64,000 nucleotides of DNA, taken from contig RPFO01000156.1 in the NCBI GenBank assembly GCA_009746045.1, positions 3,833,591 to 3,897,590 of the forward strand, written 5' to 3'. Of this stretch, positions 11,575 through 57,729 are shown piece by piece; positions within the stretch are counted from its first letter, which is position 1, and each line of letters opens with the position of its first letter. Source of the stretch: Mesostigma viride. Its lineage: Eukaryota; Streptophyta; Mesostigmatophyceae; Mesostigmatales; Mesostigmataceae. The notes under the pieces are model-generated. The model ran no database searches and had not been told where the DNA came from. It worked only from the letters and a program-made list of their open reading frames with translations. The translations under genes and the position numbers were made by a program.

Positions 11575-12918
11575 CTATGGCCAGTGTGAACTCCACTGAG
11601 CGGGGGGGAACTCCTCAGCCAGCAACCACACCCACCGCGGCACTTGCACCGCTAGAGCACGGTGCAGGCCCACGTAGTGGTCCACCGACTTGAACTGGCG
11701 CCAACGCCCGCGCTTCTGGATGTCTGGGAGTGAAACGCCCTGCAGGTAGTCGTACGTTGCCCCACCATGTCGCATGGAGTAGGGCGGAAACATCCCCCGC
11801 AGGCCCAGAACATCCCACGCCGCGTGCCACCGACGAGAGAACTGGCTGTAGTTGAGGCTCCCAAACAAGGGCTCCTCGGGCTCCCGCCCAGCGCACAGGC
11901 GCTCGAGCACGTACAGCGAGAGGGGGTCCTGCACCACCACCGCCTGTGCACCCCCCTTGGCTGTCTTGGGATCCCGCAGAAGAAGCGCACCCAGTCCCCG
12001 CTGCCCCAGGCGACGGTCGCCACGCAGTGCCACGTCCCCCACTCGGAGCTTGAAGGCCTCCCCGATGCGCAGGTATTGCTGGAAAGTGATGACGCACACG
12101 GCTGCTGCCATGGGCGCCCCCTGCCAGCGGAGGAGCTGCACCACCAGGTAGAGCAGCTCCCACGGCACCGGATTGGGGCTATGCGTTTGCACGCGTCGCT
12201 GCCACCCGTACAAGAGCCGGCGGGCCTCGCGCCACCCCTGCACTTGGCTGGGGTAGTACAGTTGCAGCCCACACAGCGCCCTCATGCACATGGAACGCCC
12301 TGCTCCCCCTCCATCCTCGTAGACAGACACGAGCCACTCGCAGAACACGCTCTCCGCTTCCTCCGGCGGTACAGCACCATAGGGCTCAGCCCACAGGAGG
12401 TACGCGATCACTGCGCGATGGTAGCTGCGCAGGGTCGCGGGCAGCACGGTGCTCTCCAGCAGTTCCTGCCGCCCTCCCGGACCCGGGTTACTCTCCACAT
12501 CGCCATCGGCGGTAAGGTCCCGCACCCACCGGCCCCGGCTGGGCGCGTCAGCGGGGTTTCGCTCCGAGCGGATGTACACCCAGTGGTACCTGGTGTTGCT
12601 GGCACAGCCCAGGGCGGCAGCGCGGCGGCACCACGTGTTGAGGCGGTAAGATGATGACCGCCCCTTCACCACTGCGCCCACAACGGCGGTGTTATCCACC
12701 AGCCGTACGTGCCGTCGCCCCCACCGCGCCCGCGTGCGCAGCCCCCACTCCAGGCTCTGCACGGCTGCGCGCGCCTCTTTCTCATTGATGTGCGCCCCCG
12801 CGTCCCTCCACCGGTGTTTCACCGCCACACGCCAGCGGGCGGTCGCCACCGCCCGATGTTCCCTCTCCCCGTTCGCTCCACACCGACCTCTTCCGACCCG
12901 ACACACAGAGTCTTCCAC
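11575..12918 (-). CDS. RNase H C-terminal part, 2A motif and tyrosine recombinase (copy B-2)
   Basis: An open frame of 447 codons, the longest uninterrupted recombinase region of any B copy. About the first 25 codons are out-of-frame read-in. Then come the RNase H Glu (HINEKEARAAVQ), Asp (RHVRLVDNTAVVG) and the SERNPADAPSRG end, followed by LTADGDVESNPGP, and about 290 residues of tyrosine recombinase. The recombinase shows the box I Arg (YLRIGEAFKLRVGDV), the Lys turn (DPKTAKGGAQAVVV), box II YSMRHGGATYDYL (Tyr in place of the usual His of HxxR), RGRWRQF and the nucleophile Tyr in KSVDHYVGL. The upstream RT is separated by a one-base loss in a C-run near 12872. The protein would integrate the element by site-specific recombination of a circular DNA, which explains the lack of target duplications. 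Confidence 0.85.
   Translation of the reverse strand: MEDSVCRVGRGRCGANGEREHRAVATARWRVAVKHRWRDAGAHINEKEARAAVQSLEWGLRTRARWGRRHVRLVDNTAVVGAVVKGRSSSYRLNTWCRRAAALGCASNTRYHWVYIRSERNPADAPSRGRWVRDLTADGDVESNPGPGGRQELLESTVLPATLRSYHRAVIAYLLWAEPYGAVPPEEAESVFCEWLVSVYEDGGGAGRSMCMRALCGLQLYYPSQVQGWREARRLLYGWQRRVQTHSPNPVPWELLYLVVQLLRWQGAPMAAAVCVITFQQYLRIGEAFKLRVGDVALRGDRRLGQRGLGALLLRDPKTAKGGAQAVVVQDPLSLYVLERLCAGREPEEPLFGSLNYSQFSRRWHAAWDVLGLRGMFPPYSMRHGGATYDYLQGVSLPDIQKRGRWRQFKSVDHYVGLHRALAVQVPRWVWLLAEEFPPAQWSSHWP
12478..12504 (-). other. 2A-type ribosome-skipping motif (copy B-2)
   Basis: Encodes GDVESNPGP, matching the D(V/I)ExNPGP consensus completely, right after the RNase H end and before the recombinase. 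In known 2A peptides the ribosome fails to form the final Gly-Pro bond, so two proteins are made from one frame. Function here is inferred from the motif. Confidence 0.8.
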
Positions 12919-15364: not shown

Positions 15365-15397
<33 letters not shown>

Positions 15398-17407: not shown

Positions 17408-20400
17408 TTACCCTCCAGCTGGTGAAGCCCTAGCGTGTCCGCTAGAGTGCGCCTCACCGAAGTATGGCCGAAATCTACGGCCCAAAGTGACGACGCCAGT
17501 CACGGGGGGCAGTCTGCCCGCGAGGTCCCACACCACCTGGGGCACCCGCACCTGCAGGGCGCGGTGGAGCCCCACGTAATGGTCCACGGACGAAAACTGG
17601 CGCCACCGGCCACGCTTTTGGATGTCCGCGATTGGTACCCCGCGCAGGTAGTCATGGGTGGCCCCCCCGTGGCGCATGCTGTAGGGTGAAAACATCCCCC
17701 GCAAGCCAAGGAGGTCCCAGGCGGCGTGCCACCGCCGCAAGAAACGGCTGTAGCTGAGTGCGCCAAAGAGCAGCTCCTCGTGCGCCCGCCCAGCACACAG
17801 GGCGCCAAGCAACGTGAGTGAAAGGGGCTCAACAACCACCACTGCCTGGGCCTGGCCCTTGGCTGTCTTGGGGTCGCGTAGCAGCAGCGCACCCTGGTTA
17901 CTGGGCCCCAGGCGGAAGTCCCCGCGCAGAGCCACGTCCCCCACGCGAAGCTTGAACGCTTCTCCGATGCGCAAGTATTGCTGAAAAACAATGATGCAGC
18001 AGCAGGCAGCTAATATCGAGCCTTGTGCACGAAGAATGTTTGCCACGAGGTACAGTAGCTGCCACGGGACGGGGTGAGGGCTCTGCACGGGAACTCGTCG
18101 CGCCCAGCCGGCCAGCAAGCGACGCGCCTCGTACCACCCCTTAATCTCGTTGGGGAAGTACAGCTGCAGCCCGCATAATGCGCGCACAACCATGGTCCGG
18201 CTTCCCCCTTCCTCATACACGCTGACCAGCCACTCACAAAAGACGCCTTCCGCCTCCGTCTTGGCCACGGGAGCGAGGGGTTGACCATACTCCACGTACG
18301 CCCTCAGCGCTCGGTGATATGCAGCTAGCGTGCTGGGCTGCACAGTGGCCTCCAGCAATTCCTGCCGCCCATGTGGCCCCGGATTGCTCTCCACGTCGCC
18401 ATCCGCAGTGAGGTTGCGCACCCATCGACCACGACTGGGCGCGTCGGCCGGGTTGCGCTCCGACCTCACATACACCCAGTGGTAGCGGGTGTTGCTGGCC
18501 AGCCCTAGCGCGATCGCCCGGCGGCACCAGGCGTTCAGCCGGTAGGACGACGAACGCCCTTTGACGAGCGCACCGACAACTGCCGAATTGTCCACCAGCC
18601 GCACGTGACGTTGCTGCCAGTGAACCTGTGAGCGCAGGCCCCACTCGATCCCTTGCACAGCCGCACGAATCTCCTTCTCGTTGATGTGGGCCGAGGGATC
18701 GAGCCACCGGTGGGCAAGAGCGGTCGCCACTGCGCCGCTGCCATGGCTCGGTGCTCAATCTCCCCTGTGCGCTCCACGCTGGCCGTCTCAGAGTCCACAC
18801 AGAGCGTCTTCCAGCCCTTCCGCTCCCGACAGTTGGACAGGCCACGCACCGCAGGCGCCTCCCACCGGCTGTACACCACCCCAGAACCGTGGGTTGACGC
18901 ATCAGTGGCCACCACGGTGCAGCTCAGGGGCTGGTCGCGCTGCGCATGCACCAGCGGGGCCAAGTCCATTGCAGCCTGGAGCTCTTCCCTTACACTACCC
19001 CACAGCCGATAGCTCCAGCCCCGCTTGTGCACCAGGACTTGCTGCAGCAAGCGGTAGGCGTGAAACCAGATGGACAGTAGACCCCGACGCAGCAAGTGGA
19101 CCCACACCCACCGTCCCAGCAACGAGGCCAGTTGGTGGTAAGTGGCCCGTCCACGCCCCAGCATTGCCTGCGTGTCGCGCACCAAGGCCGCCATCCGGGC
19201 CGCGCTCGGCCGCATGGACCCGTCCTGGCAGAACTCAATCCCCAAGATTTCCACCGGGCGCCCCTCCTCAGCTCTCTCCACCTTCTTCTCGTTGACCACC
19301 AACCCCTTGGGACCGTAGCTCTCCTCGCACGCCTTGGTGAGCACGGCGTTGGTCTCCTCCGCGCTCCGCCCATGGGTGACCCCCAGATCATCGATCATGA
19401 CCAGCTGAGCGGGATGTGGGGGATCCTCCGGCAGCAGCCGCCACGCTGCACTGGCTGCGCTCTCCACCAACTCCAGCCGGTCCATGCCATCCCCGCGCAC
19501 TGTGCGCACCCCCATCAAGTGCATGGGATATGACAGCCCTCTCTTGGCATCGAGCACCCCGCCCCGTAGAGACAGTGCAGGTGGGCAACCTGTGCAAGGA
19601 CCACCGAGTGGCTCCAGCCCATGACAAGGACCCGGAACCTGGGGTACAACTTTCGCCGTCGTCCCAGCTGGCCGACCTCATCGGACCACACGGGGGGCAG
19701 CGAGAAATAGGGGCGCCAGCTCTCAGGTACCTCGAACCGGTAATAGTAGGTGTCAAGGTCTGTCTTGCCCGAATAGCATGGCGCCCCCACACTCAGCTCA
19801 GCGACCTCGCCCAAGTTAGGCAGGTAACAGGTAGGCGGCTTGAGGAAGCGCCGGTTGCACGGCACCATATTCCCTATAAACCGCTGCCGTCGTTCGCTGG
19901 GCTCCACAACCCCGGGGTCTTTCTTGGGGACGGCAAAACAGCCGTTCACCACAGGGGCGCCTCCTCACTGTACTCGATCATCCGCGTCTCCGCCAGCCTG
20001 ATGCTCAGTCGTGCGTACGCCGCATCGCTTGCACAACCATGAGACACCCGGCCCCGCCGCATCCACGCCCCCGCCTCCGCGTCGCATCTTTGTAGAATGT
20101 TGTTTATGTCCTCATACGTCCTCTGCCATGCCTCCGGCAGGCAGTCCAGCAGCTTGACACTACCTGCAGCTCCTCCTTTTGGCAGTGCCAGCCTCTCCGG
20201 GTCAATAATTTCGTATTGACCGCCCGGCCCGTATGGCGCGGGCTCTGCGTCCCCCGTGTCTGTCGCCTCCGCTACGGCGGTAAGCCGGCGGTTGTAGACG
20301 CGGGCAGCATCCTCCATCCCTTGTAGGGCGGCCCTTTGGGCGACGGTGCAGGGGCTCGCAGTAATAGCCTGCTGCTGCACCGCCGGTCCACCGGACCGTT

Positions 20401-20533: not shown

Positions 20534-20565
20534 CTTCACTGGCAGCGGGAGCACACCCCTGCCCC

Positions 20566-21317: not shown

Positions 21318-21378
<61 letters not shown>

Positions 21379-22089: not shown

Positions 22090-22445
22090 TATAGAATTCA
22101 AAGATGAAGAAATTTCTCACAACTAGGCTCAATATTCCGCAATCTTGGAGACTGAGAAAAATTTCGGACTGAAAATTTGTCACTCAGTTCTACCTTGCGG
22201 ACTTTTACTCCCGTTGCGCAAACCCGTCAAAACTTGGTGCGAAAACCGTCAAAATGATGTCGGCTATTGTCTCACGATTAGTTTGACACCAACTTTGTCA
22301 AAAACGGTGAAGTATTGCTCTAGTTGTGTTGAAAACTGATCAGCTGGCTTGGCAGCCATCACCACCTTGAAATACATCGCATCAACGTTGCATCCGTGAC
22401 ACACGCAAGTGCGGCGCCCCGCTGGCGCGGCGCTCCATGTAAGAA
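22090..22445 (-). other. Leader of A-minus and inner part of its A1 repeat
   Basis: Untranslated leader between the A1 repeat and gag. 22325-22445 is the inner 120 bp of A1; the insertion of A-plus lies at 22445/22446. Confidence 0.75.
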
Positions 22446-22953
22446 TGATTGATCTTACGATCGGGATTCCCTGATTTTGCCTGGGGGAGCGGAGGGATGG
22501 AGGTGCGCCGCTACCTTGGAGGCGCTACACCATTGCCCAGTGGTGCAAGTCGACATGCGGGAGCCAAACGGGGTGGCCACGCCCTCTCTGGAGGGTCTGA
22601 CAGCCTTGGATGGGCCTCAGATGTAGTTCGAACTAGTTCAAAGTTAGTACAGGTAGTACAAACTAGTTCAAACGAGTTCAATCTACTTCAACTAGTATCC
22701 AGGGACCCTCAAGATATGCCAGGTGGTTGCTGAACGGTTCTGGCATGACAGAACATGTGTGACATCATAAAAATGTAGTACAATGTTGAAAAAAGTAGTA
22801 TCAGGGTCCTAGATCTAGTACAGTAGTATTCTGAGGTCATTCTTACATGGAGCGCCGCGCCAGCGGGGCGCCGCACTTGCGTGTGTCACGGATGCAACGT
22901 TGATGCGATGTATTTCAAGGTGGTGATGGCTGCCAAGCCAGCTTATCAGTTTT
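22446..22953 (+). repeat. A-family A1 repeat (A-plus)
   Basis: 508 bp. Begins TGATTGATCTTACGATCGGG and ends CAGTTTT. Contains clustered TAGTTCAA/TAGTACAA words (22625-22700, 22770-22830). A2 at 28074-28582 is the matching copy. Confidence 0.9.
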
Positions 22954-23195
22954 CAACACAACTAGAGCAATACTTCACCGTTTTTGACAAAGTTGGTGTC
23001 AAACTAATCGTGAGACAATAGCCGACAACATTTTGACGGTTTTCGCACCAAGTTTTGACGGGTTTGCGCAACGGGAGTAAAAGTCCGCAAGGTAGAACTG
23101 AGTGACAAATTTTCAGTCCGAAATTTTTCTCAGTCTCCAAGATTGCGGAATATTGAGCCTAGTTGTGAGAAATTTCTTCATCTTTGAATTCTATA

Positions 23196-23906
23196 ATGGC
23201 TAGTGATCACGAAGACACCACCCTTGAGGCAGTAGACCGAGATTTCTTATTAAATGTGAAAAAATCGTATTTTCAGGGGGGCAAGGAGTTGTTAACGACT
23301 TTGAAGTTCTTGACTGAGTATCTCGGTCCAAACTGGGCCCAAAGGCTTACTACTATGTCTGAGGGTCGTTTGACATCCTTGGGACAGTTTCTCAAGACTG
23401 CAGGGCTCCAGATTAGTGAGGGGTCAAGTGATTCCGACATGGGTTCCATGTTGTGCAAGGCCATTACTCTAGAGATGAAGAAGCCCCCAGTGGCCACTGG
23501 GGGCAAGGGGAAGACTGGTCCAGCCAGGGGCGAAAGGACCCGAAAGGATCCTCCCAGCAACGGCACCGACGAGGAAGAGGAGGACGCGACGAGCTCTGAG
23601 GATTTTTTGGACGCGCGCGAGCAGCTGGCCCCTGCTGCTGCTCGCGCCAAGGGAAAGAAGTCTCAGGGCAGGAACCGAAAGCTGGCAGAGAATGCTGCCC
23701 TTCTGGCGGGCGTCCGCGAGCTCATCGGAGCGGAGTTGCAAGCCCTGGCGCGGGGGAAGAGGAGGGACGCGAGGAAAGGGAAGAGCCAGCGCGAGGACAA
23801 GGGGGGCAAGGGCCATCCGAAGAGCAAGCGCCAGGAGAAGAGACGCGCGCGGCGCGGGAGCAGCCCAGGCTCGACAGACACCAGCAGTGGGAGCGACGAG
23901 AGTCGC

Positions 23907-23960
<54 letters not shown>

Positions 23961-24701
23961 TCCGACAGCGAGAGCAGAGGCCGTGGCAGGGGCAGGGGTG
24001 GCGCTCGGTCGCGCCGCGACAAGTCCCGGGAGCGACGTGGGCATGGCAGGGGCCGTTCTGCGGAGCCCAAGGGGCGTCGGGATCGCTCCCGCGAGCGTCG
24101 CAAGGAGCGGCAGCGGTCCAGCAGCCGGAGCACGAGTCGGGACTCCTCCCAGCGGAGCTCGCGTCGATCGCGGGAGCGTGTGAGGGAGAGAGACCTGCGC
24201 CGAACCACCAAGGGGGTGCGTCTCCCCCGGCGAGCTTTCAAAGTGGCCTGGCGCCTGTTGGTCAAGGACCGCGACGACAGGGTGCTGCCGCTGCAGGTGC
24301 TGGATGCGCGCCAGGTCGCGCACGGGAGCCTGCAGGCCCGCTTGGCCCTTCGCAAGGAGCAGGAGGGCGTTGGGGCTGCACCGGGAGCCCCCCGCGGGTG
24401 GAAGAACAGCACGCACCATCTGGTGTGCAACAACCTGACCTACATTCTGGATGTGGCCATCCAAGAGCTGGGGGAGGATGTGGTGACGGAGCTGGCCTGC
24501 TTCGAGTACCTGGCGCGTGTGGTCGAGGCGTTCCTCATGGTGGAGAAGACCAGCGGCTGGAACAACGGGGCGATGCACCTGCTGCCACTGGTGGAGGGCA
24601 GTACTATTGGAAGCGCAGCAGCCCGGGCAGCGCGGAAGGCGGCTCGCCAGGAGGCGGAGCTGGCATCGGCGGCGGCGGCGGCGGCCAAAAAGGACAAGTG
24701 A
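23196..24701 (+). CDS. gag-like RS-rich protein of A-plus
   Basis: Open frame of 501 residues from the ATG at 23196 (MASDHEDTTLEAVDRDF). It is identical to the minus copy except for a poly-Ser run shortened by six codons (23908-23955), so the repeat is mobile in length. Domain order: N-terminal mixed domain (1-110), acidic stretch (DEEEEDATSSED), basic region, Ser run, RG/RS-rich region, and a C-terminal module with VTELACFEYLARVVEAF that the B gag also has. The stop TGA at 24699 lies inside the pol frame, which is offset by -1. A nucleic-acid-binding gag role is inferred. The RS domain could instead target host splicing or nuclear speckle factors. Confidence 0.82.
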
Positions 24702-24733
24702 GGGGCAGGGGTGTGCTCCCGCTGCCAGTGAAG

Positions 24734-25740
24734 ATGGTCCCCCCGCTCGACCGCAGCCGCCTGCGATCCAACCGCAGGCTGCAGCGCGCTCTGCGTGCCA
24801 GAGCAAGGCTGCGGTGTCAAGAGCGGGCCACAAGGGGCCTGAACTGGCTGTGGGGCAGGACCCGGGAACGGTCCGGTGGACCGGCGGTGCAGCAGCAGGC
24901 TATTACTGCGAGCCCCTGCACCGTCGCCCAAAGGGCCGCCCTACAAGGGATGGAGGATGCTGCCCGCGTCTACAACCGCCGGCTTACCGCCGTAGCGGAG
25001 GCGACAGACACGGGGGACGCAGAGCCCGCGCCATACGGGCCGGGCGGTCAATACGAAATTATTGACCCGGAGAGGCTGGCACTGCCAAAAGGAGGAGCTG
25101 CAGGTAGTGTCAAGCTGCTGGACTGCCTGCCGGAGGCATGGCAGAGGACGTATGAGGACATAAACAACATTCTACAAAGATGCGACGCGGAGGCGGGGGC
25201 GTGGATGCGGCGGGGCCGGGTGTCTCATGGTTGTGCAAGCGATGCGGCGTACGCACGACTGAGCATCAGGCTGGCGGAGACGCGGATGATCGAGTACAGT
25301 GAGGAGGCGCCCCTGTGGTGAACGGCTGTTTTGCCGTCCCCAAGAAAGACCCCGGGGTTGTGGAGCCCAGCGAACGACGGCAGCGGTTTATAGGGAATAT
25401 GGTGCCGTGCAACCGGCGCTTCCTCAAGCCGCCTACCTGTTACCTGCCTAACTTGGGCGAGGTCGCTGAGCTGAGTGTGGGGGCGCCATGCTATTCGGGC
25501 AAGACAGACCTTGACACCTACTATTACCGGTTCGAGGTACCTGAGAGCTGGCGCCCCTATTTCTCGCTGCCCCCCGTGTGGTCCGATGAGGTCGGCCAGC
25601 TGGGACGACGGCGAAAGTTGTACCCCAGGTTCCGGGTCCTTGTCATGGGCTGGAGCCACTCGGTGGTCCTTGCACAGGTTGCCCACCTGCACTGTCTCTA
25701 CGGGGCGGGGTGCTCGATGCCAAGAGAGGGCTGTCATATC
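24734..25740 (+). pseudogene. pol N-terminal extension and RT fingers/palm (A-plus), two frame breaks
   Basis: Starts at the ATG 24734 (MVPPLDRSRLRSNRRLQ), 33 bp after the gag stop and in its -1 frame. The frame is also open upstream to 24398, so frameshifting would be possible too. The extension (about 195 codons) ends EYSEEAPLW at a TGA at 25319. The next frame carries NGCFAVPKKDPGVVEPS, then motif A (SGKTDLDTYYYRF) and motif B (RFRVLVMGWSHSVVLAQVAH), and runs to about 25740. A second frame change near 25706 leads to motif C. The B family reads continuously through both points (EYSEEEPPVTNGLFGVPK), which shows that the A copies are damaged rather than using two separate genes. Confidence 0.82.
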
Positions 25741-27860
25741 CCATGCACTTGATGGGGGTGCGCACAGTGCGCGGGGATGGCATGGACCGGCTGGAGTTGG
25801 TGGAGAGCGCAGCCAGTGCAGCGTGGCGGCTGCTGCCGGAGGATCCCCCACATCCCGCTCAGCTGGTCATGATCGATGATCTGGGGGTCACCCATGGGCG
25901 GAGCGCGGAGGAGACCAACGCCGTGCTCACCAAGGCGTGCGAGGAGAGCTACGGTCCCAAGGGGTTGGTGGTCAACGAGAAGAAGGTGGAGAGAGCTGAG
26001 GAGGGGCGCCCGGTGGAAATCTTGGGGATTGAGTTCTGCCAGGACGGGTCCATGCGGCCGAGCGCGGCCCGGATGGCGGCCTTGGTGCGCGACACGCAGG
26101 CAATGCTGGGGCGTGGACGGGCCACTTACCACCAACTGGCCTCGTTGCTGGGACGGTGGGTGTGGGTCCACTTGCTGCGTCGGGGTCTACTGTCCATCTG
26201 GTTTCACGCCTACCGCTTGCTGCAGCAAGTCCTGGTGCACAAGCGGGGCTGGAGCTATCGGCTGTGGGGTAGTGTAAGGGAAGAGCTCCAGGCTGCAATG
26301 GACTTGGCCCCGCTGGTGCATGCGCAGCGCGACCAGCCCCTGAGCTGCACCGTGGTGGCCACTGATGCGTCAACCCACGGTTCTGGGGTGGTGTACAGCC
26401 GGTGGGAGGCGCCTGCGGTGCGTGGCCTGTCCAACTGTCGGGAGCGGAAGGGCTGGAAGACGCTCTGTGTGGACTCTGAGACGGCCAGCGTGGAGCGCAC
26501 AGGGGAGATTGAGCACCGAGCCATGGCAGCGGCGCAGTGGAGGACCGCTCTTGCCCACCGGTGGCTCGATCCCTCGGCCCACATCAACGAGAAGGAGATT
26601 CGTGCGGCTGTGCAAGGGATCGAGTGGGGCCTGCGCTCACAGGTTCACTGGCAGCAACGTCACGTGCGGCTGGTGGACAATTCGGCAGTTGTCGGTGCGC
26701 TCGTCAAAGGGCGTTCGTCGTCCTACCGGCTGAACGCCTGGTGCCGCCGGGCGATCGCGCTAGGGCTGGCCAGCAACACCCGCTACCACTGGGTGTATGT
26801 GAGGTCGGAGCGCAACCCGGCCGACGCGCCCAGTCGTGGTCGATGGGTGCGCAACCTCACTGCGGATGGCGACGTGGAGAGCAATCCGGGGCCACATGGG
26901 CGGCAGGAATTGCTGGAGGCCACTGTGCAGCCCAGCACGCTAGCTGCATATCACCGAGCGCTGAGGGCGTACGTGGAGTATGGTCAACCCCTCGCTCCCG
27001 TGGCCAAGACGGAGGCGGAAGGCGTCTTTTGTGAGTGGCTGGTCAGCGTGTATGAGGAAGGGGGAAGCCGGACCATGGTTGTGCGCGCATTATGCGGGCT
27101 GCAGCTGTACTTCCCCAACGAGATTAAGGGGTGGTACGAGGCGCGTCGCTTGCTGGCCGGCTGGGCGCGACGAGTTCCCGTGCAGAGCCCTCACCCCGTC
27201 CCGTGGCAGCTACTGTACCTCGTGGCAAACATTCTTCGTGCACAAGGCTCGATATTAGCTGCCTGCTGCTGCATCATTGTTTTTCAGCAATACTTGCGCA
27301 TCGGAGAAGCGTTCAAGCTTCGCGTGGGGGACGTGGCTCTGCGCGGGGACTTCCGCCTGGGGCCCAGTAACCAGGGTGCGCTGCTGCTACGCGACCCCAA
27401 GACAGCCAAGGGCCAGGCCCAGGCAGTGGTGGTTGTTGAGCCCCTTTCACTCACGTTGCTTGGCGCCCTGTGTGCTGGGCGGGCGCACGAGGAGCTGCTC
27501 TTTGGCGCACTCAGCTACAGCCGTTTCTTGCGGCGGTGGCACGCCGCCTGGGACCTCCTTGGCTTGCGGGGGATGTTTTCACCCTACAGCATGCGCCACG
27601 GGGGGGCCACCCATGACTACCTGCGCGGGGTACCAATCGCGGACATCCAAAAGCGTGGCCGGTGGCGCCAGTTTTCGTCCGTGGACCATTACGTGGGGCT
27701 CCACCGCGCCCTGCAGGTGCGGGTGCCCCAGGTGGTGTGGGACCTCGCGGGCAGACTGCCCCCCGTGACTGGCGTCGTCACTTTGGGCCATAGATTTCGG
27801 CCATACTTCGGTGAGGCGCACTCTAGCGGACACGCTAGGGCTTCACCAGCTGGAGGGTAA
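25710..27860 (+). CDS. RT motif C to tyrosine recombinase with internal 2A (A-plus)
   Basis: 716 codons open. RT motif C LVMIDDLGVTHGRS (about 50-65), thumb GLVVNEKKVERA and VEILGIEFCQDGS. RNase H: Asp in VVATDASTHGSGVVY, Glu in HINEKEIRAAVQ, Asp in RHVRLVDNSAVVG, then SERNPADAPSRG. LTADGDVESNPGP follows at residues about 383-395. The tyrosine recombinase comes after it: N-terminal SAM-like part (STLAAYHRALRAYVEY), box I Arg YLRIGEAFKLRVGDV, PKTAKGQAQ, YSMRHGGATHDYL, RGRWRQFSSVDHYVG with nucleophile Tyr, and a C-terminal tail. If the 2A works, RT-RNase H and recombinase are released as two proteins. The start is a continuation of pol, not a true initiation codon. Confidence 0.9.
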   Translation: MLDAKRGLSYPMHLMGVRTVRGDGMDRLELVESAASAAWRLLPEDPPHPAQLVMIDDLGVTHGRSAEETNAVLTKACEESYGPKGLVVNEKKVERAEEGRPVEILGIEFCQDGSMRPSAARMAALVRDTQAMLGRGRATYHQLASLLGRWVWVHLLRRGLLSIWFHAYRLLQQVLVHKRGWSYRLWGSVREELQAAMDLAPLVHAQRDQPLSCTVVATDASTHGSGVVYSRWEAPAVRGLSNCRERKGWKTLCVDSETASVERTGEIEHRAMAAAQWRTALAHRWLDPSAHINEKEIRAAVQGIEWGLRSQVHWQQRHVRLVDNSAVVGALVKGRSSSYRLNAWCRRAIALGLASNTRYHWVYVRSERNPADAPSRGRWVRNLTADGDVESNPGPHGRQELLEATVQPSTLAAYHRALRAYVEYGQPLAPVAKTEAEGVFCEWLVSVYEEGGSRTMVVRALCGLQLYFPNEIKGWYEARRLLAGWARRVPVQSPHPVPWQLLYLVANILRAQGSILAACCCIIVFQQYLRIGEAFKLRVGDVALRGDFRLGPSNQGALLLRDPKTAKGQAQAVVVVEPLSLTLLGALCAGRAHEELLFGALSYSRFLRRWHAAWDLLGLRGMFSPYSMRHGGATHDYLRGVPIADIQKRGRWRQFSSVDHYVGLHRALQVRVPQVVWDLAGRLPPVTGVVTLGHRFRPYFGEAHSSGHARASPAGG
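26868..26894 (+). other. 2A-type ribosome-skipping motif (A-plus)
   Basis: Nine codons encode GDVESNPGP. Skipping would fall between Gly (26889-26891) and Pro (26892-26894). Five of the nine codons differ synonymously from the B-family version while no residue differs. Confidence 0.82.
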
Positions 27861-27927
27861 GGATGTGCCCTCCCATGGCTCCTGACGCGGTTTCCAGATG
27901 TACGGCCTGCGGCCAGGTTGGAGATGC

Positions 27928-28073
27928 GGGTCAAGTGGAAGCGGCGGCCAGGGACTGCCAAAAAATATTTTATGTCTCTCTGTCTACTAAGTCCGGTCGG
28001 CTTCAACATATAGTGTAATAAACAAGTTCTGGTGCCCTTCAACCAGAAGTGGACCTAGGCAATGCACAGTGGA
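27928..28073 (+). repeat. B1 repeat (A-plus)
   Basis: Runs from GGGTCAAGTGG to the terminus GCACAGTGGA, directly followed by A2. It matches B2 at 28618-28762. Confidence 0.9.
28017..28022 (+). terminator. Polyadenylation signal AATAAA in B1
   Basis: AATAAA followed by CAAGTTCTGGTGCC. The same 20-bp context is kept in the B-family B repeats, whose flanks have diverged, which suggests use as the 3' end of the element RNA. A second copy is in B2. Confidence 0.55.
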
Positions 28074-28582
28074 TGATTGATCTTACGATCGGGATTCCCT
28101 GATTTTGCCTGGGGGAGCGGAGGGATGGAGGTGCGCCGCTACCTTGGAGGCGCTACACCGTTGCCCAGTGGTGCAAGTCGACATGCGGGAGCCAAACGGG
28201 GTGGCCACGCCCTCTCTGGAGGGTCTGACAGCCTTGGATGGGCCTCAGATGTAGTTCGAACTAGTTCAAAGTTAGTACAGGTAGTACAAACTAGTTCAAA
28301 CGAGTTCAATCTACTTCAACTAGTATCCAGGGACCCTCAAGATATGCCAGGTGGTTGCTGAACGGTTCTGGCATGACAGAACATGTGTGACATCATAAAA
28401 ATGTAGTACAATGTTGAAAAAAGTAGTATCAGGGTCCTAGATCTAGTACAGTAGTATTCTGAGGTCATTCTTACATGGAGCGCCGCGCCAGCGGGGCGCC
28501 GCACTTGCGTGTGTCACGGATGCAACGTTGATGCGATGTATTTCAAGGTGGTGATGGCTGCCAAGCCAGCTGATCAGTTTTC
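28074..28582 (+). repeat. A2 repeat (A-plus)
   Basis: 509 bp, matching A1 at 22446-22953 with very few changes. Bounded on the left by B1 and on the right by a G/C-asymmetric linker (28583-28617). Confidence 0.9.
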
Positions 28583-28617
28583 CCCACCCACCCACCCTTT
28601 TCTGTTTCGTCTTGGGG

Positions 28618-28762
28618 GGTCAAGTGGAAGCGGCGGCCAGGGACTGCCAAAAAATATTTTATGTCTCTCTGTCTACTAAGTCCGGTCGGCTTCAACATAT
28701 AGTGTAATAAACAAGTTCTGGTGCCCTTCAACCAGAAGTGGACCTAGGCAATGCACAGTGGA
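28618..28762 (+). repeat. B2 repeat (A-plus)
   Basis: Second copy of B, ending at the element terminus GCACAGTGGA. The next base belongs to the split A1 repeat of A-minus. Confidence 0.9.
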
Positions 28763-29156
28763 TGACCTCAGAATACTACTGTACTAGATCTAGGACCCTG
28801 ATACTACTTTTTTCAACATTGTACTACATTTTTATGATGTCACACATGTTCTGTCATGCCAGAACCGTTCGGCAACCACCTGGCATATCTTGAGGGTCCC
28901 TGTATACTAGTTTAAGTAGATTGAACTCGTTTGAACTAGTTTGTACTACCTGTACTAACTTTGAACTAGTTTGAACTACATCTGAGGCCCATCCAAGGCT
29001 GTCAGACCCTCCAGAGAGGGCGTGGCCACCCCGTTTGGCTCCCACATGTCGACTTGCACCACTGGGCAACGGTGTAGCGCCTCCAAGGTAGCGGCGCACC
29101 TCCATCCCTCCGCTCCCCCAGGCAAAATCAGGGAATCCCGATCGTAAGATCAATCA
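28763..29156 (-). repeat. Outer part of the A1 repeat of A-minus
   Basis: 394 bp matching 22446-22839 in inverted orientation, ending GATCAATCA, the 5' terminus of A-minus. It was separated from the rest of A-minus by the insertion of A-plus. Confidence 0.88.
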
Positions 29157-29791: not shown

Positions 29792-29941
29792 TAGTGCCCC
29801 TTATAAAAGACCAGGGCCTATTATAAAATATTAAATGCTCTATTTACTTTTTATATGTGCTGTCACCCAGCGGCGTCCCTTGCCTCCTTCGCTCCCTCCG
29901 CCCCGACAAATCAGGGAATCCAGATCGAGGGAGATCAACCA
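29792..29941 (-). mobile_element. Terminal fragment of a possible third YR family
   Basis: The last 37 bases (29905-29941, CAAATCAGGGAATCCAGATC followed by GAGGGAGATCAACCA) match the A1 terminus of families A and B with small differences. The rest (TTATAAAATATTAAATGC...) matches neither. It abuts the B-2 terminus on one side and the piggyBac coding fragment on the other. I read it as the remaining tip of a third, related element. Confidence 0.4.
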
Positions 29942-42673: not shown

Positions 42674-45600
42674 CTACTGCCAGTGTGAACTCCACTGAGC
42701 GGGGGGGAACTCCTCAGCCAGCAACCACACCCACGCGGCACTTGCACCGCTAGAGCACGGTGCAGGCCCACGTAGTGGTCCACCGACTTGAACTGGCGCC
42801 AACGCCCGCGCTTCTGGATGTCTGGGAGTGAAACGCCCTGCAGGTAGTCGTACGTTGCCCCACCATGTCGCATGGAGTAGGGCGGAAACATCCCCTGCAG
42901 GCCCAGAACATCCCACCCGCGTGCCACCGACGAGAGAACTGGCTGTAGTTGAGGCTCCCAAACAAGGGCTCCTCGGGCTCCCGCCCAGCGCACAGGCGCT
43001 CGAGCACGTACAGCGAGAGGGGTCCTGCACCACCACCGCCTGTGCACCCCCCTTGGCTGTCTTGGGATCCCGCAGAAGAAGCGCGCCCAGTCCCCGCTGC
43101 CCCAGGCGACGGTCGCCACGCAGTGCCACGTCCCCCACTCGGAGCTTGAAGGCCTCCCCGATGCGCAGGTATTGCTGGAAAGTGATGACGCACACGGCTG
43201 CTGCCATGGGCGCCCCCTGCCAGCGGAGGATCTGCACCACCAGGTAGAGCAGCTCCCACGGCACCGGATTGGGGCTATGCGTTTGCACGCGTCGCTGCCA
43301 CCCGTACAGGAGCCGGCGGGCCTCGCGCCACCCCTGCACTTGGCTGGGGTAGTACAGTTGCAGCCCACACAGCGCCCTCATGCACATGGAACGCCCTGCT
43401 CCCCCTCCATCCTCGTAGACAGACACGAGCCACTCGCAGAACACGCTCTCCGCTTCCTCCGGCGGTACAGCACCATAGGGCTCAGCCCACAGGAGGTACG
43501 CGATCACTGCGCGATGGTAGCTGCGCAGGGTCGCGGGCAGCACGGTGCTCTCCAGCAGTTCCTGCCGCCCTCCCGGACCCGGGTTACTCTCCACATCGCC
43601 ATCGGCGGTAAGGTCCCGCACCCACCGGCCCCGGCTGGGCGCGTCAGCGGGGTTTCGCTCCGAGCGGATGTACACCCAGTGGTACCTGGTGTTGCTGGCA
43701 CAGCCCAGGGCGGCAGCGCGGCGGCACCACGTGTTGAGGCGGTAAGATGATGACCGCCCCTTCACCACTGCGCCCACAACGGCAGTGTTATCCACCAGCC
43801 GCACGTGCCGTCGCCCCCACCGCGCCCGCGTGCGCAGCCCCCACTCCAGGCTCTGCACGGCTGCGCGCGCCTCTTTCTCATTGATGTGCGCCCCCGCGTC
43901 CCTCCACCGGTGTTTCACCGCCACACGCCAGCGGGCGGTCGCCACCGCCCGATGTTCCCTCTCCCCCGTTCGCTCCACACCGACCTCTTCCGCCCCGACA
44001 CACAGAGTCTTCCACCCCTTCATTTCGCGGCAGTTGGACAAAGCCTTCACGTCTGCCTCTGCCAGACGGGCGTACACCACACCGGAGCCCCGGCTCGACG
44101 CGTCACTGGCCACGACGGTGGTGTCCAGTGGCTGGTTGCGCTGCGCATGCACCAGGGGAGCCAGGCAGACAGCCGCCCAGAGCTCCCGGCGCACACTTGC
44201 CCAGAGTTGGAAGCGTCCTCCCTTGCGGAGGGCCAGCACTTGGTGGAGCATCCTGTAGGCGTGGAACCAGGTGCTTAGCAGACTCCTGCGCAGCAGCTGG
44301 ATCCATACCCAGCGTCCCAGTAGGGAGGCCAGCTCATGGTAGCTTGCTCGTCCCCGGGCCAGCACCGCCTCGGTGTCGTGGACCAGGAGGGCCAGTCGCT
44401 TCGCCGACGGCCACAAGCTCCCATCTTGGTGAAACTCGATGCCCAGGATCTCAACAGCTTGACCCTCCCGCGCCCGCTCGACCTTTTTCTCATTCACCAC
44501 CAGGCCAGCTGGCGCGTAGCACTCGGTGCATGCGCGGTCCAGCAGCGCGTTCGCCTCCGCTGCGCTGCGCGCGTGTGTGGTGCCCAGGTCGTCGATCATG
44601 ACCAACTGCGCCGGCCGAGGAGGGTCCTCGGGCAGCAGCTGCCAGTCAAGTTCGGAGGCCCCCACCAACTCCATCCACTCCCGTCCTCCCTCACGCACTG
44701 TGCGCACCCCGAGCTGATGCATCGGGACGCTCACACTCAGCCCGGGGTTCAGCTTCCCCGGCCCGAACAGGGTCTGCATGTGCGCCACCTGCGCCAGCAG
44801 GACCGAGTGAGACCACCCCATCACCAGAACACGGAACCTGGGATAGAGCCGGCGGCGCTCCCCGGGCTGGCCGACCTCGTCCGACCAGACTGGGGGCAGC
44901 GCGAACCACTCCCGCCACTCCGTTGGCACGGAGAAGCGGTAGTAGTACGTCTCCAGGTCCGTTTTGCTCGAGTAGCTGGGCGCGCCCCCTGCCATCTCGG
45001 CCACCGCCCCCACATCTGGCAGGTAACAGCCGCCAGGGGTGAGGAACTTGTCGTTGCTCTGCACCATGTTGCAGATGAGTCGCTGGCGCTGGGCTGACGG
45101 GTCCACCACCCCTGGATCGCGCTTGGGCACGCCGAACAGGCCGTTGGTGACCGGGGGCTCCTCCTCGCTGTACTCTGTCATCCCGGTCTCCGCCAGCCGC
45201 ACGCTCAGGCGCGCGTACTCTGTGTCGCTCGCACAGCCATGCGTCACTCGCCGTCGACGCCCTGGCTGCACTACCTCCTCCTCCCTCAAAATATTTTTTA
45301 TGTTGCCATATACCTCCCTCCACTGGGGGGGAGGCAGTCCATCAGCGGCACGCTGCCCGCCACTCCGCCCGCGGGCAGCGCAAGTCTCTCTGGGACAATC
45401 ATTTCATATTGCCCGTCGGGCCCATAGGGCCCAGACTCAACGTCATGCACCAGGTCCTCTGCCGCTACGGCTCTCAGCCGGCGCTCATGGACCTGGGCGG
45501 CAATCTCCAGCCCTTGTAGGGCCGCCTGCTGGGCAGCGGTGCAGGGAGCCGTTGCCGTCGCCCCGCTAGTGCCGCGCCCTGGGGGCCCGCCGGCAGGCGT

Positions 45601-50944: not shown

Positions 50945-51775
50945 TCCTCTGTGCATGCTTTCAGGTTCACTTTGTTTGAGAAGGCACCAGAACTTGTTTA
51001 TTGCAAAATTATATGCTTAAGCCGCTTGCAGGCCTTGGTAGACCGAGAGACTGGCAAATTGTGCGCAAGTCCCAGGCGGCTGCCACCATATAACACCCCC
51101 AGAGACAACAAACAAACAAACAAACAAAAGAGGGTGGGTGGGTGGGGAAAACTGATAAAGCATGCGCCGCCATGTCTTCCTCAATAAATTGGCTGCATTG
51201 CATGCGCACGGTGACGGATGCAAGTCCGGTACAGTACTGGCGCGGCGCCCAGGTGCCACTGAACAGTTGTACTACAAAGAACCCATTTGTACTGATTCTT
51301 TCGACATTGTACTACGTTTAGTCACTGTCTACTTCAACCCAGGTGGTCATACCACCTCCTAGGCAGGTTGTGCTACACCTGAACGAATCTTTACTAGCCT
51401 GAGCTAGTTTGAACTAGTTTGAAGTAGATTGTACTACCCTGTAGTACCAATGAAGTACTTTGAACTACATCCAAGTACTTGGAAGCAGTCCAGAGGTCAT
51501 TTGCAGGGACTTTCACCCTTTCCAGGAGCATTTCTGCAGATCAGCCATGAGGCAGCGGCACCGACTCGCACTCCGCTCCCCTTAGTCGCAAATCAGGGAA
51601 TCCAGATCGTAAGATCAACCATCCTCTGTGCATGCTTTCAGGTTCACTTTGTTTGAGAAGGCACCAGAACTTGTTTATTGCAAAATTATATGCTTAAGCC
51701 GCTTGCAGGCCTTGGTAGACCGAGAGACTGGCAAATTGTGCGCAAGTCCCAGGCGGCTGCCACCATATAACACCC
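50945..51775 (-). repeat. B2-A2-B1 split direct repeats of B-5
   Basis: B2 at 50945-51096, linker with (CAAA)n and GGGTGGGTGGG, A2 at 51148-51621, B1 at 51622-51775, each boundary formed by the element termini. Confidence 0.9.
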
Positions 51776-52110
51776 GCATCTCCAACCTGGCCGTCCCCGG
51801 CCGCATCTGGAGTGGTTGTAGAGGGGGAAGCCCTAGCGTGGCTGCTAGAGTGCGCCTCCCCTGCACCTGTCAACGCAGGTACCCGCAGAGCCCTAGTGTA
51901 TCCACTAGAGTGCGCCCCGCCGGCTCTGTCCAAGGCAGGATACGGTCGAAGTTGAGCCAAACCGGAAATCAGGATGATGGCGCGACGCCCAAAACCAGCA
52001 GGGCCCCAGCGTGTCCGCTGGAGTGCGCCCTGCCGACTCCTCCAACGGAGCTGCATCGTTTTATACTGCGCCCCCCGGCCTAGACCGGGGCAGGCGCATC
52101 CCCACACTTG

Positions 52111-54726
52111 CTACTGCCAGTGTGAACTCCACTGAGCGGGGGGGAACTCCTCAGCCAGCAACCACACCCACCGCGGCACTTGCACCGCTAGAGCACGGTG
52201 CAGGCCCACGTAGTGGTCCACCGACTTGAACTGGCGCCAACGCCCGCGCTTCTGGATGTCTGGGAGTGAAACGCCCTGCAGGTAGTCGTACGTTGCCCCA
52301 CCATGTCGCATGGAGTAGGGCGGAAACATCCCCCGCAGGCCCAGAACATCCCACGCCGCGTGCCACCGACGAGAGAACTGGCTGTAGTTGAGGCTCCCAA
52401 ACAAGGGCTCCTCGGGCTCCCGCCCAGCGCACAGGCGCTCGAGCACGTACAGCGAGAGGGGTCCTGCACCACCACCGCCTGTGCACCCCCCTTGGCTGTC
52501 TTGGGATCCCGCAGAAGAAGCGCGCCCAGTCCCCGCTGCCCCAGGCGACGGTCGCCACGCAGTGCCACGTCCCCCACTCGGAGCTTGAAGGCCTCCCCGA
52601 TGCGCAGGTATTGCTGGAAAGTGATGACGCACACGGCTGCTGCCATGGGCGCCCCCTGCCAGCGGAGGATCTGCACCACCAGGTAGAGCAGCTCCCACGG
52701 CACCGGATTGGGGCTATGCGTTTGCACGCGTCGCTGCCACCCGTACAGGAGCCGGCGGGCCTCGCGCCACCCCTGCACTTGGCTGGGGTAGTACAGTTGC
52801 AGCCCACACAGCGCCCTCATGCACATGGAACGCCCTGCTCCCCCTCCATCCTCGTAGACAGACACGAGCCACTCGCAGAACACGCTCTCCGCTTCCTCCG
52901 GCGGTACAGCACCATAGGGCTCAGCCCACAGGAGGTACGCGATCACTGCGCGATGGTAGCTGCGCAGGGTCGCGGGCAGCACGGTGCTCTCCAGCAGTTC
53001 CTGCCGCCCTCCCGGACCCGGGTTACTCTCCACATCGCCATCGGCGGTAAGGTCCCGCACCCACCGGCCCCGGCTGGGCGCGTCAGCGGGGTTTCGCTCC
53101 GAGCGGATGTACACCCAGTGGTACCTGGTGTTGCTGGCACAGCCCAGGGCGGCAGCGCGGCGGCACCACGTGTTGAGGCGGTAAGATGATGACCGCCCCT
53201 TCACCACTGCGCCCACAACGGCGGTGTTATCCACCAGCCGTACGTGCCGTCGCCCCCACCGCGCCCGCGTGCGCAGCCCCCACTCCAGGCTCTGCACGGC
53301 TGCGCGCGCCTCTTTCTCATTGATGTGCGCCCCCGCGTCCCTCCACCGGTGTTTCACCGCCACACGCCAGCGGGCGGTCGCCACCGCCCGATGTTCCCTC
53401 TCCCCCGTTCGCTCCACACCGACCTCTTCCGACCCGACACACAGAGTCTTCCACCCCTTCATTTCGCGGCAGTTGGACAAAGCCTTCACGTCTGCCTCTG
53501 CCAGACGGGCGTACACCACACCGGAGCCCCGGCTCGACGCGTCACTGGCCACGACGGTGGTGTCCAGTGGCTGGTTGCGCTGCGCATGCACCAGGGGAGC
53601 CAGGCAGACAGCCGCCCAGAGCTCCCGGCGCACACTTGCCCAGAGTTGGAAGCGTCCTCCCTTGCGGAGGGCCAGCACTTGGTGGAGCATCCTGTAGGCG
53701 TGGAACCAGGTGCTTAGCAGACTCCTGCGCAGCAGCTGGATCCATACCCAGCGTCCCAGTAGGGAGGCCAACTCATGGTAGCTTGCTCGTCCCCGGGCCA
53801 GCACCGCCTCGGTGTCGTGGACCAGGAGGGCCAGTCGCTTCGCCGACGGCCACAAGCTCCCATCTTGGTGAAACTCGATGCCCAGGATCTCACAGCTTGA
53901 CCTCCCGCGCCCGCTCGACCTTTTTCTCATTCACCACCAGGCCAGCTGGCGCGTAGCACTCGGTGCATGCGCGGTCCAGCAGCGCGTTCGCCTCCGCTGC
54001 GCTGCGCGCGTGTGTGGTGCCCAGGTCGTCGATCATGACCAACTGCGCCGGCCGAGGAGGGTCCTCGGGCAGCAGCTGCCAGTCAAGTTCGGCGGCCCCC
54101 ACCAACTCCATCCACTCCCGTCCTCCCTCACGCACTGTGCGCACCCCGAGCTGATGCATCGGGACGCTCACACTCAGCCCGGGGTTCAGCTTCCCCGGCC
54201 CGAACAGGGTCTGCATGTGCGCCACCTGCGCCAGCAGGACCGAGTGAGACCACCCCATCACCAGAACACGGAACCTGGGATAGAGCCGGCGGCGCTCCCC
54301 GGGCTGGCCGACCTCGTCCGACCAGACTGGGGGCAGCGCGAACCACTCCCGCCACTCCGTTGGCACGGAGAAGCGGTAGTAGTACGTCTCCAGGTCCGTT
54401 TTGCTCGAGTAGCTGGGCGCGCCCCCTGCCATCTCGGCCACCGCCCCCACATCTGGCAGGTAACAGCCGCCAGGGGTGAGGAACTTGTCGTTGCTCTGCA
54501 CCATGTTGCAGATGAGTCGCTGGCGCTGGGCTGACGGGTCCACCACCCCTGGATCGCGCTTGGGCACGCCGAACAGGCCGTTGGTGACCGGGGGCTCCTC
54601 CTCGCTGTACTCTGTCATCCCGGTCTCCGCCAGCCGCACGCTCAGGCGCGCGTACTCTGTGTCGCTCGCACAGCCATGCGTCACTCGCCGTCGACGCCCT
54701 GGCTGCACTACCTCCTCCTCCCTCAA
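52111..54726 (-). pseudogene. RT, RNase H, 2A and recombinase of B-5, frame-broken
   Basis: Two main open parts: RT motifs A-C from 54726 to about 53900 (SSKTDLETYYYRF, MGWSHSV, MIDDLGTTH), and thumb-RNase H-2A-recombinase from about 53895 to 52460. Two bases are lost at 53890-53905 and one G near 52460, after which the recombinase catalytic end continues in another frame (to 52111, SMRHGGATYDYL, KSVDHYVGL). The G loss is shared with B-3. The 2A motif stays in frame with RNase H. Confidence 0.87.
53013..53039 (-). other. 2A-type motif (B-5)
   Basis: GDVESNPGP, same codons as the other B copies. Confidence 0.8.
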
Positions 54727-54734
54727 AATATTTT

Positions 54735-55248
54735 TTATGTTGCCATATACCTCCCTCCACTGGGGGGGAGGCAGTCCATCAGCGGCACGCTGCCCGCCAC
54801 TCCGCCCGCGGGCAGCGCAAGTCTCTCTGGGACAATCATTTCATATTGCCCGTCGGGCCCATAGGGCCCAGACTCAACGTCATGCACCAGGTCCTCTGCC
54901 GCTACGGCTCTCAGCCGGCGCTCATGGACCTGGGCGGCAATCTCCAGCCCTTGTAGGGCCGCCTGCTGGGCAGCGGTGCAGGGAGCCGTTGCCGTCGCCC
55001 CGCTAGTGCCGCGCCCTGGGGGCCCGCCGGCAGGCGTGGCCATTGCTGGCCCCGCCCCACACCCGGCCGCCCCCACAGGCGGTTCCCGTGTCCCCCCCAC
55101 ATCCAGTTCAGGCCTTCCACGAGCCGGACCATGAGCAGCAAGCGTGCCCGCCGCCGCGTGGCTCGCTGCAGCCTGCGTCGTGAGCGCAGGCGGGACCGGT
55201 CGAGGGGCTGGACGGCCGGAACTGGGAGGGGGAACACGCCGCGCCCCC
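54735..55248 (-). pseudogene. pol N-terminal extension of B-5
   Basis: Overlaps the gag end in the -1 frame (FPLPVPAVQPLDRSRLRSRRRL). It then shifts at the C-run near 55095, continues as AAQQAALQGLEIAAQVHERRL, and breaks again in the G-run near 54764 (reads LPPSGGRYMAT and stops). The same breaks are in B-3, whereas B-2 and B-4 read through as LPPQWREVYGNI. Confidence 0.75.
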
Positions 55249-55883
55249 TCACTTCTGCTTGTTGCTGGCGGAGGAGGAGGCCACCGCCCCCCCATCCACC
55301 TTGGCCAGCACCGCCGCGCTGACCCGCGCGTCGTGCTCCTTCTTGGCGGCCTTGAGAGCCCGTCGCGCCGCCCTCGTCCGCTGGCTGCCGCTCTCCACCA
55401 CCGGCAGCACGAAGGCGGCCTGGGCGACCCACGCGCCCTGGCCCCGCTCGCTCTCCACCACCATGAGTGACTCCACGATGCGTGCAAAGTACTCCATGCA
55501 CGCGAGCTCGGTCACCGCCGTGACTCCCAGCTCCTTCACCGCCACGTCCAGGGCGTGGCACAGGTTGACCGCGATGTCCATGCGCTCGCGACTCTGCCAC
55601 CCGCTGGTCTGGCCTGGCCCACGGATGAACATGGGCTTCAGGCCCTCCAGCCGGGCCCGCAGACTGCCCCCGTACCGGTCCTTGGCCGTTTGCAGGTACT
55701 CGGGCAGCACCCGCAGCTTGTACCGGTAGTCCTCCACCTCCCAAGGGATGCTGGTGGCAGTCCCCGGCAGGGCGACCCCCTTGGTCATGGGCACAGCCAA
55801 CACCTGGCCGCTCGCTGGGTCGGCGCGACCCGGTAGGCGGTCCCTGCGGCGCCGGCTGCTGCTGCGCCGGCCCGAGTCGCTGC

Positions 55884-55934
<51 letters not shown>

Positions 55935-57161: not shown

Positions 57162-57254
57162 TTTTTGCTGCAAAATCACTTAATATGACGTGGAAATTAT
57201 CGAGCTTTAAAGAGCGCAAAAAGAACGAGTGATTTTGACCAAGAAACGGCAAAG

Positions 57255-57729
57255 AAAACTGATAAAGCATGCGCCGCCATGTCTTCCTCAATAAATTGGC
57301 TGCATTGCATGCGCACGGTGACGGATGCAAGTCCGGTACAGTACTGGCGCGGCGCCCAGGTGCCACTGAACAGTTGTACTACAAAGAACCCATTTGTACT
57401 GATTCTTTCGACATTGTACTACGTTTAGTCACTGTCTACTTCAACCCAGGTGGTCATACCACCTCCTAGGCAGGTTGTGCTACACCTGAACGAATCTTTA
57501 CTAGCCTGAGCTAGTTTGAACTAGTTTGAAGTAGATTGTACTACCCTGTAGTACCAATGAAGTACTTTGAACTACATCCAAGTACTTGGAAACAGTCCAG
57601 AGGTCATTTGCAGGGACTTTCACCCTTTCCAGGAGCATTTCTTGCAGATCAGCCATGAGGCAGCGGCACCGACTCGCACTCCGCTCCCCTTAGTCGCAAA
57701 TCAGGGAATCCAGATCGTAAGATCAACCA
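57255..57729 (-). repeat. A1 repeat of B-5
   Basis: 475 bp. The terminus TGGTTGATC (complement) is at 57729, directly beside B-4 pol sequence. Confidence 0.92.

What the first reader, a model, noticed from the sequence alone, without database searches (positions are those of the whole stretch)
26868..26894. 2A ribosome-skipping motif between RNase H and tyrosine recombinase in a YR retrotransposon
Seen: GDVESNPGP is in frame between the RNase H end (NPADAPSRG) and the recombinase in all six copies that keep the region (12478-12504, 18374-18400, 26868-26894, 43574-43600, 53013-53039, 57876-57902). Between families A and B five of nine codons differ, all synonymously, while flanking residues diverge. 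Known: D(V/I)ExNPGP makes ribosomes skip the last Gly-Pro bond in many viruses and in some non-LTR retrotransposons. I know of no description in DIRS-order elements. Inference: the element uses 2A to release recombinase and RT-RNase H as separate proteins from one frame.
Basis: partly seen in the sequence, partly recalled or inferred. Interest (0 to 1): 0.93.

Follow-up and report, generated by a model that had tools for sequence, protein, structure and literature searches.

The report
Ribosome-skipping peptide in algal retrotransposon
A jumping gene of a green alga carries, between two of its enzymes, the short peptide by which many RNA viruses make ribosomes release one protein and go on with the next without a stop codon, and related jumping genes carry at the same spot either this peptide or one of a few unstudied ones that also end in Gly-Pro.

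Summary
GDVESNPGP lies in frame between RNase H and tyrosine recombinase (YR) in six copies of two retrotransposon families (0.0007 expected, 6 seen). The host is Mesostigma viride or a near relative; the elements have split direct repeats. Family B reads WVRDLTADG-DVESNPGP, a complete match to 'motif 4' of a 2026 StopGo survey, almost 100% active in reticulocyte lysate. In a predicted model it is the linker between an RNase H and a Cre-like fold. Relatives about 30% identical carry 'motif 1' or leucine-rich 2A there. So 2A release of RT-RNase H from YR is the best reading; translation was not tested. My searches found no paper on 2A in DIRS-order elements, but a 2025 survey could not be read.

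Further: 102 of 109 fused RT-RNase H-YR proteins carry a Gly-Pro-ending peptide at this junction. Only 12 are canonical 2A; others read FDSTLG(F/Y)PGEGP, (V/I)GEAxxPGP-like or GDGP. The peptide changes between relatives while both flanks stay alike. These may be new ribosome-skipping classes.

The parts
26868..26894 (+). 2A core GDVESNPGP, copy A2
26841..26894 (+). 18-residue 2A peptide RWVRNLTADGDVESNPGP, copy A2 (family A: N where motif 4 has its first D)
18374..18427 (-). same 18-residue peptide, copy A1
12478..12531 (-). 18-residue 2A peptide RWVRDLTADGDVESNPGP, copy B1
43574..43627 (-). same, copy B2
53013..53066 (-). same, copy B3
57876..57929 (-). same, copy B4 (interrupted copy)
22445..28765 (+). 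element A2, split direct repeats: A at 22445-22954 and 28073-28582, B at 27928-28076 and 28617-28765
23169..24701 (+). A2 first open frame (510 codons), putative gag by position only; no Pfam match
25590..27860 (+). A2 frame holding the end of RT, RNase H, 2A and YR (756 codons)
26340..26837 (+). A2 RNase H domain (model residues 21-186)
   Evidence: fold match; Pfam gave only a weak match below cut-off
26895..27857 (+). A2 tyrosine recombinase, PF00589
41542..48302 (-). element B2, split direct repeats: A at 47823-48302 and 41709-42188, B at 42220-42341 and 41542-41663
42674..45403 (-). B2 frame holding RT, RNase H, 2A and YR (909 codons; out of frame in the catalytic part of YR)
50945..57729 (-). 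element B3, split direct repeats: A at 57254-57729 and 51147-51621, B at 51622-51778 and 50945-51101

Best explanation
This is a functional 2A (StopGo) peptide in the pol gene of a tyrosine-recombinase retrotransposon of a green alga. Shown: RNase H, the 2A peptide and YR follow one another in one frame, and the peptide is the linker between two predicted folds. Inferred: once the ribosome has made ...WVR(D/N)LTADGDVESNPG, the nascent chain in the exit tunnel prevents bonding to the next Pro; RT-RNase H is released ending in NPG and the ribosome goes on at Pro to make YR. The element so gets a free recombinase from one frame without a second start, a frameshift or a protease.
Against: No translation data. 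Family A has N for the first D of motif 4, and the survey reports near-complete loss of activity for most changes of characteristic residues, so A may be weaker. 97 of 109 fused relatives lack the canonical core. Upstream conservation alone is weak evidence, because the RNase H end is conserved as well. The copies examined have broken frames, so present-day activity in this window is not shown.
Confidence: 0.88

Rival explanations
1. The peptide is a real 2A, but its main role is dosage: many ribosomes release RT-RNase H and do not resume, so that little recombinase is made.
For: Release without resumption is one of the three outcomes in the model of PMC4981915 (outline and abstract). An enzyme that opens and joins DNA may be wanted in small amounts (inference).
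Against: The class it matches separates at almost 100% in lysate; what share of ribosomes resume is not told in the sections I read.
Confidence: 0.2
2. The junction peptide is a conserved linker or short binding motif (for example a contact site or import signal) and no skipping takes place; the likeness to 2A is coincidence.
For: The upstream RNase H end is conserved too; most fused relatives have other peptides there; GEA peptides lie in Arg-Gly-rich stretches.
Against: Two published StopGo contexts are matched over 16-17 residues at one junction. The stretch is predicted disordered. Many close relatives end the frame after RNase H, so the two enzymes need not be joined: 99 of 125 proteins without YR stop within 14 residues.
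Confidence: 0.06
3. The peptides are protease sites, cut by a host or element enzyme after translation.
For: Several unrelated peptides share one place, as protease sites in polyproteins do.
Against: No protease domain was found in the window frames given to Pfam (not an exhaustive scan). Pro after the break is disfavoured by most endoproteases (general knowledge). Canonical 2A needs no protease.
Confidence: 0.04

Closest known systems
Viral 2A / StopGo, motif 4 and motif 1 classes of Li et al. 2026 (PMC12846837; abstract and sections 9, 10, 14 read)
   Same: Core octapeptide, six upstream residues, p15 preference, and even the one-residue offset between motifs 4 and 1.
   Different: There in RNA virus polyproteins; here in a retrotransposon between RNase H and tyrosine recombinase, in the green lineage. 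Activity is measured there, inferred here.
2A of non-LTR retrotransposons (L1Tc; APE-type elements), known to me from passages of PMC11512398 and recall; the original papers were not held
   Same: 2A in frame in a retroelement.
   Different: Those are non-LTR elements; this one has split direct repeats and a tyrosine recombinase, and the peptide sits between RNase H and recombinase.
DIRS-order elements with split direct repeats (PAT-like, Ngaro-like, VIPER; PMC3266345 and PMC6681497, passages)
   Same: RT, RNase H, YR and repeats in the order A ... B-A-B.
   Different: In the passages read YR is a region or frame of its own, overlapping, separate or inverted; here it is fused behind a 2A peptide.
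SymbioDIRS elements of Symbiodinium (PMC5890265, passages)
   Same: Algal DIRS-order elements with A-coding-B-A-B repeats.
   Different: A separate frame encodes the recombinase; '2a-like' occurs 0 times in the text.

Membership tests
StopGo / 2A peptides | Core (D/G/C/N)(V/I)ExNPGP | tested here: met
   DVESNPGP at six places
StopGo / 2A peptides | A known upstream hexapeptide class | tested here: met
   Family B DLTADG = motif 4; family A NLTADG differs at one place
StopGo / 2A peptides | In frame between two separate proteins or domains | tested here: met
   Frames; folds
StopGo / 2A peptides | Two products without a stop codon in translation, lost on changing NPGP | not testable with these tools
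   Needs a translation assay
StopGo / 2A peptides (for the PGEGP, GEA and GDGP peptides) | Core (D/G/C/N)(V/I)ExNPGP | tested here: not met
   90 of 109 fused proteins have only these peptides; GEA keeps PGP, the other two keep only the final GP. Working alike is not excluded
DIRS order | Tyrosine recombinase in place of a DDE integrase | tested here: met
   PF00589 E 1.2e-7 above cut-off; Cre-like fold
DIRS order | RT and RNase H in pol | tested here: met
   RNase H by fold; RT only by homology along the whole length to P0009 and P0010, which match RVT_1; the window frames themselves gave no RVT_1 match
PAT-like / Ngaro-like / VIPER subgroup | Split direct repeats A ... B-A-B | tested here: met
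   A2, B2, B3
PAT-like / Ngaro-like / VIPER subgroup | RT-RNase H branching with named members of one subgroup | not tested
   No named reference elements at hand
DIRS1-like subgroup | Inverted terminal repeats with internal complementary regions | tested here: not met
   B2 and B3 show direct repeats only; inverted matches around A2 are explained by its lying inside another copy (my reading)
Non-LTR elements with 2A | Non-LTR element, no terminal repeats, no tyrosine recombinase | tested here: not met
   Repeats and YR present

The most novel reading that the evidence does not exclude
Fused DIRS-order pol genes hold a slot for exchangeable co-translational release peptides, of which canonical 2A is one. 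FDSTLG(F/Y)PGEGP, (V/I)GEAx(N/H/K)PGP-like and GDGP peptides are further classes of ribosome-skipping peptide that share with 2A little more than the final Gly-Pro. They fill the same predicted-disordered linker, replace one another between elements 74-85% identical in RT-RNase H and 80-92% in YR (and replace canonical 2A between elements 59-63% identical), occur in tandem, and lose conservation right after the Pro as 2A does.
Probability: 0.45. Interest if true: 0.93.

Novelty: new variant of a known kind. Interest (0 to 1): 0.85.

Why it matters
It would extend natural StopGo use to tyrosine-recombinase retrotransposons and to the green lineage, and explain how a fused pol can supply a free recombinase without a protease. 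It also gives a short list of natural peptides, FDSTLG(F/Y)PGEGP first, that can be put into a dual reporter at once. If even one of them skips, the view that StopGo needs an NPGP-like core falls, and a new comparison opens for how nascent chains disarm the ribosome, with use in multi-gene expression. If none skips, their replacement of 2A at one site still needs explaining.

Tried and rejected
Chance: rejected (0.0007 expected, 6 seen). Viral source of the peptide or element: a viral-contig scan with P0001 gave 4 pattern stretches and no relative; one with alignment A1 gave seven loci that match only in the recombinase part; DNA patterns for the motif 4 stretch and for FDSTxG(F/Y)PGEGP gave 0 places each. 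Taking the 2A from a virus is neither shown nor excluded. Genome contigs gave two bacterial loci, again in the recombinase part; not followed. PDB sequence search: 0.

Limits. No DNA was at hand for the PGEGP, GEA and GDGP relatives, so a splice-site or frameshift reading of those peptides is untested. Hosts of nearly all relatives are unknown. The four peptide patterns were written after looking at the junctions; GDGP is the loosest (P0064 may be chance). The rows of alignments A1-A3 and of the 44- and 43-row trees were picked by me after seeing the junctions; groups for the AU tests were named after the trees; the trees used the simpler model (LG+G4) and warned of long branches meeting. The contrast of fused (102 of 109 with a peptide) and unfused (3 of 125) proteins is partly built in: 99 of the 125 end within 14 residues of RNase H; of the 26 with longer tails, 3 have a peptide. 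Gly-Pro within 80 residues after RNase H: 105 of 109 proteins, 54.4 expected on shuffling residues. Searches scored only about 8000 candidates each, and one search listed 120 of 216.

Literature: 0 papers with 'DIRS', 'tyrosine recombinase', '2A-like' or '2A peptide', 'DIRS', 'retrotransposon'; 'NPGP' and 'dinoflagellate' gave one review; the letters PGEGP, FDSTLG, GEASNPGP, GEAKNPGP gave seven papers, all for PGEGP, unrelated by title; listings showed no title on 2A in DIRS-order elements. Rao et al. 2025 (Cell Reports), which searched viral and cellular proteomes for 2A, is not held and may list such elements. Supplementary files were not read.

Full report
What is there. GDVESNPGP occurs in frame at all six places named; its Pro is the 19th residue after NPADAPSR, the end of RNase H, and the recombinase follows directly. 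No other NPGP is found in six frames, and 0.0007 matches to the expanded 2A core would be expected. Between families A and B, 5 of 9 codons differ with no residue change. Upstream the RNase H end is also conserved (1 of 30 residues differs); downstream 17 of 30 differ at +10 to +39. This is a count, not a formal dN/dS test. The six copies form two families (98-99.6% alike within, about 71% between).

Host and element. P0006 and P0007, gene models with Mesvir1 in their names, are 99% identical to families A and B, so the window is from Mesostigma viride, a streptophyte green alga, or a very near relative. Self-comparison shows split direct repeats in the order A ... B-A-B: A2 is 22445-28765 (+), B2 is 41542-48302 (-), B3 is 50945-57729 (-). 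From the matching segments I read that A2 lies inside A1, and A1 inside B1. One frame holds RNase H, 2A and YR: 756 codons at 25590-27860, and 909 codons, RT included, at 42674-45403 (-). The three elements analysed (A2, B2, B3) all have frame breaks in pol; B2 is out of frame in the catalytic part of YR. Relatives P0002-P0004, 66-79% identical, are single proteins of 1029-1054 aa.

Match to known 2A. Li et al. 2026 (PMC12846837; abstract and sections 9, 10, 14 read) widen the core to (D/G/C/N)(V/I)ExNPGP and describe upstream classes. Motif 4 is DLTxDG with D at p12 and S preferred at p15; motif 1 is (R/K)DLTxE with G at p12 and P at p15; both share WV(R/K)DLTx[acidic]G, and examples of both gave almost 100% separation in reticulocyte lysate. 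Family B reads WVRDLTADG-DVESNPGP, a complete motif 4; family A has N for the first D. P0009 and P0094 read WVRDLTEE-GIEPNPGP and P0010 WTRDLTEE-GIEPNPGP, motif 1. P0081, P0087 and P0093, distant proteins with a YR profile match here but no Pfam match, have leucine-rich 2A there. P0091, a EukProt entry named for the dinoflagellate Amphidinium carterae, has LLLAGDVETNPGP near its end, without a recognised YR. The one-residue offset between motifs 4 and 1, reported across viruses, recurs here among retrotransposons.

The slot is wider than 2A. I examined 249 proteins: the window's P0001 and 248 hits of three searches. 115 match a YR profile made here, and 109 of these have a recognised RNase H end upstream. 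Of the 109, 102 have, within 140 residues after RNase H, one of four peptides ending in Gly-Pro: canonical 2A 12 (three being the window itself or Mesostigma models), G(F/Y/L)PGEGP 44 (two of them in tandem), (V/I)GEAxxPGP and variants 31, GDGP 13, GDGP plus GEA 2; 7 have none. Grouped at 60% identity these are 47 clusters, 42 with a peptide (canonical 4, PGEGP 19, GEA 11, GDGP 8). Elsewhere in the 249 proteins the patterns occur 8 times, one of them in a YR body, the others in truncated proteins or ones without a recognised RNase H end or YR. In the PGEGP class the 12 residues FDSTLG(F/Y)PGEGP have 3.3-4.3 bits each and the next residue 1.3; canonical rows go from 4.3 to 1.4 at the same step, GEA from 4.3 to 2.6, GDGP from 4.3 to 1.7. 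In an alignment of 18 proteins of three classes, rows picked by me, the final Gly and Pro are invariant and the two residues before them are not. A model of P0106 (PGEGP class; mean pLDDT 84.6) again has its peptide, 683-694, in a stretch under pLDDT 50 (683-700) between RNase H and YR, so a fold does not explain the conservation.

The peptides replace one another. On an RT-RNase H tree of 98 rows the four classes need at least 10 changes, all six labels 14. A tree of 44 rows and a YR tree of 43 rows agree at the key places: P0205 (PGEGP) is sister to P0204 (GEA) at 100/100 and 100/99; P0217 (GDGP) groups with PGEGP rows at 88/97 and 99/92; the motif 1 rows join PGEGP rows P0095 and P0096 at 93/75 and 96/96. 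A single clade of PGEGP rows is rejected on RT-RNase H (p 1e-5) and YR (p 2e-100), and of canonical rows too (p 0.0004 and 0.004). Identity in RT-RNase H and YR: P0204/P0205 79% and 82%; P0217/P0225 83% and 92%; P0224/P0225 74% and 80%; P0010/P0095 63% and 63%; P0009/P0096 59% and 60%. P0108 and P0109 carry two PGEGP units; P0212 and P0236 carry a GDGP unit before the GEA unit that their sisters have alone. The caveats on post-hoc classes, chosen rows and the tree model stand under Tried and rejected.

Mechanism. Shown: position, frame, identity to an assayed motif class, retention and replacement. Inferred: co-translational release of RT-RNase H and continued synthesis of YR from Pro; 0.88 for the window's elements. 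For the other peptides I infer the same task from their place, their exchange with canonical 2A and the common Gly-Pro, at 0.45. A binding motif or protease site is possible, though a Pro after the break speaks against most proteases (general knowledge).

Known or new. I found no paper joining DIRS-order elements and 2A in the library searched (listings), nor in passages of PMC5890265, PMC3266345, PMC6681497, PMC3537659 and PMC8547959. PMC11512398 (passages) names non-LTR retrotransposons and NOD-like receptors as 2A carriers outside viruses. Rao et al. 2025 could not be read. I call it a new variant of a known kind: known peptide, new class of element, new junction, with a bolder case for new peptide classes.

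Noticed in passing
RNase H-YR junction of P0095-P0118, P0205, P0222 and others: A nearly invariant 12-residue peptide FDSTLG(F/Y)PGEGP, in tandem in P0108 and P0109, stands where 2A would be.
   Followed up: partly
RNase H-YR junction of P0063, P0201-P0242: (V/I)GEAx(N/H/K)PGP-like peptides, often after an Arg-Gly-rich stretch, and GDGP peptides alternate among close relatives.
   Followed up: partly
P0021, P0135, P0188, P0198: Four of the seven fused proteins without a Gly-Pro peptide share another motif there, like KQRNRLxHxxNGNT, and form one clade.
   Followed up: no
window 10443-29793: Apparent nest of three related elements: A2 inside A1 inside B1.
   Followed up: partly
B2 and B3 upstream of the main pol frame (about 45320-46260 in B2): B2 and B3 share the same two frame changes relative to P0002; shared mutations or an unrecognised intron or recoding site.
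   Followed up: no
window 40553-41749 (+): Open frame with a DDE_Tnp_1_7 transposase match (E 1.9e-40).
   Followed up: no
window 34064-35809 (-): Open frame with a DUF7869 match (E 4.9e-13).
   Followed up: no
P0197: A protein recorded under Nostoc sp. DedSLP01 is 49% identical to P0010 over 59% of the query; possibly contamination of that assembly.
   Followed up: no
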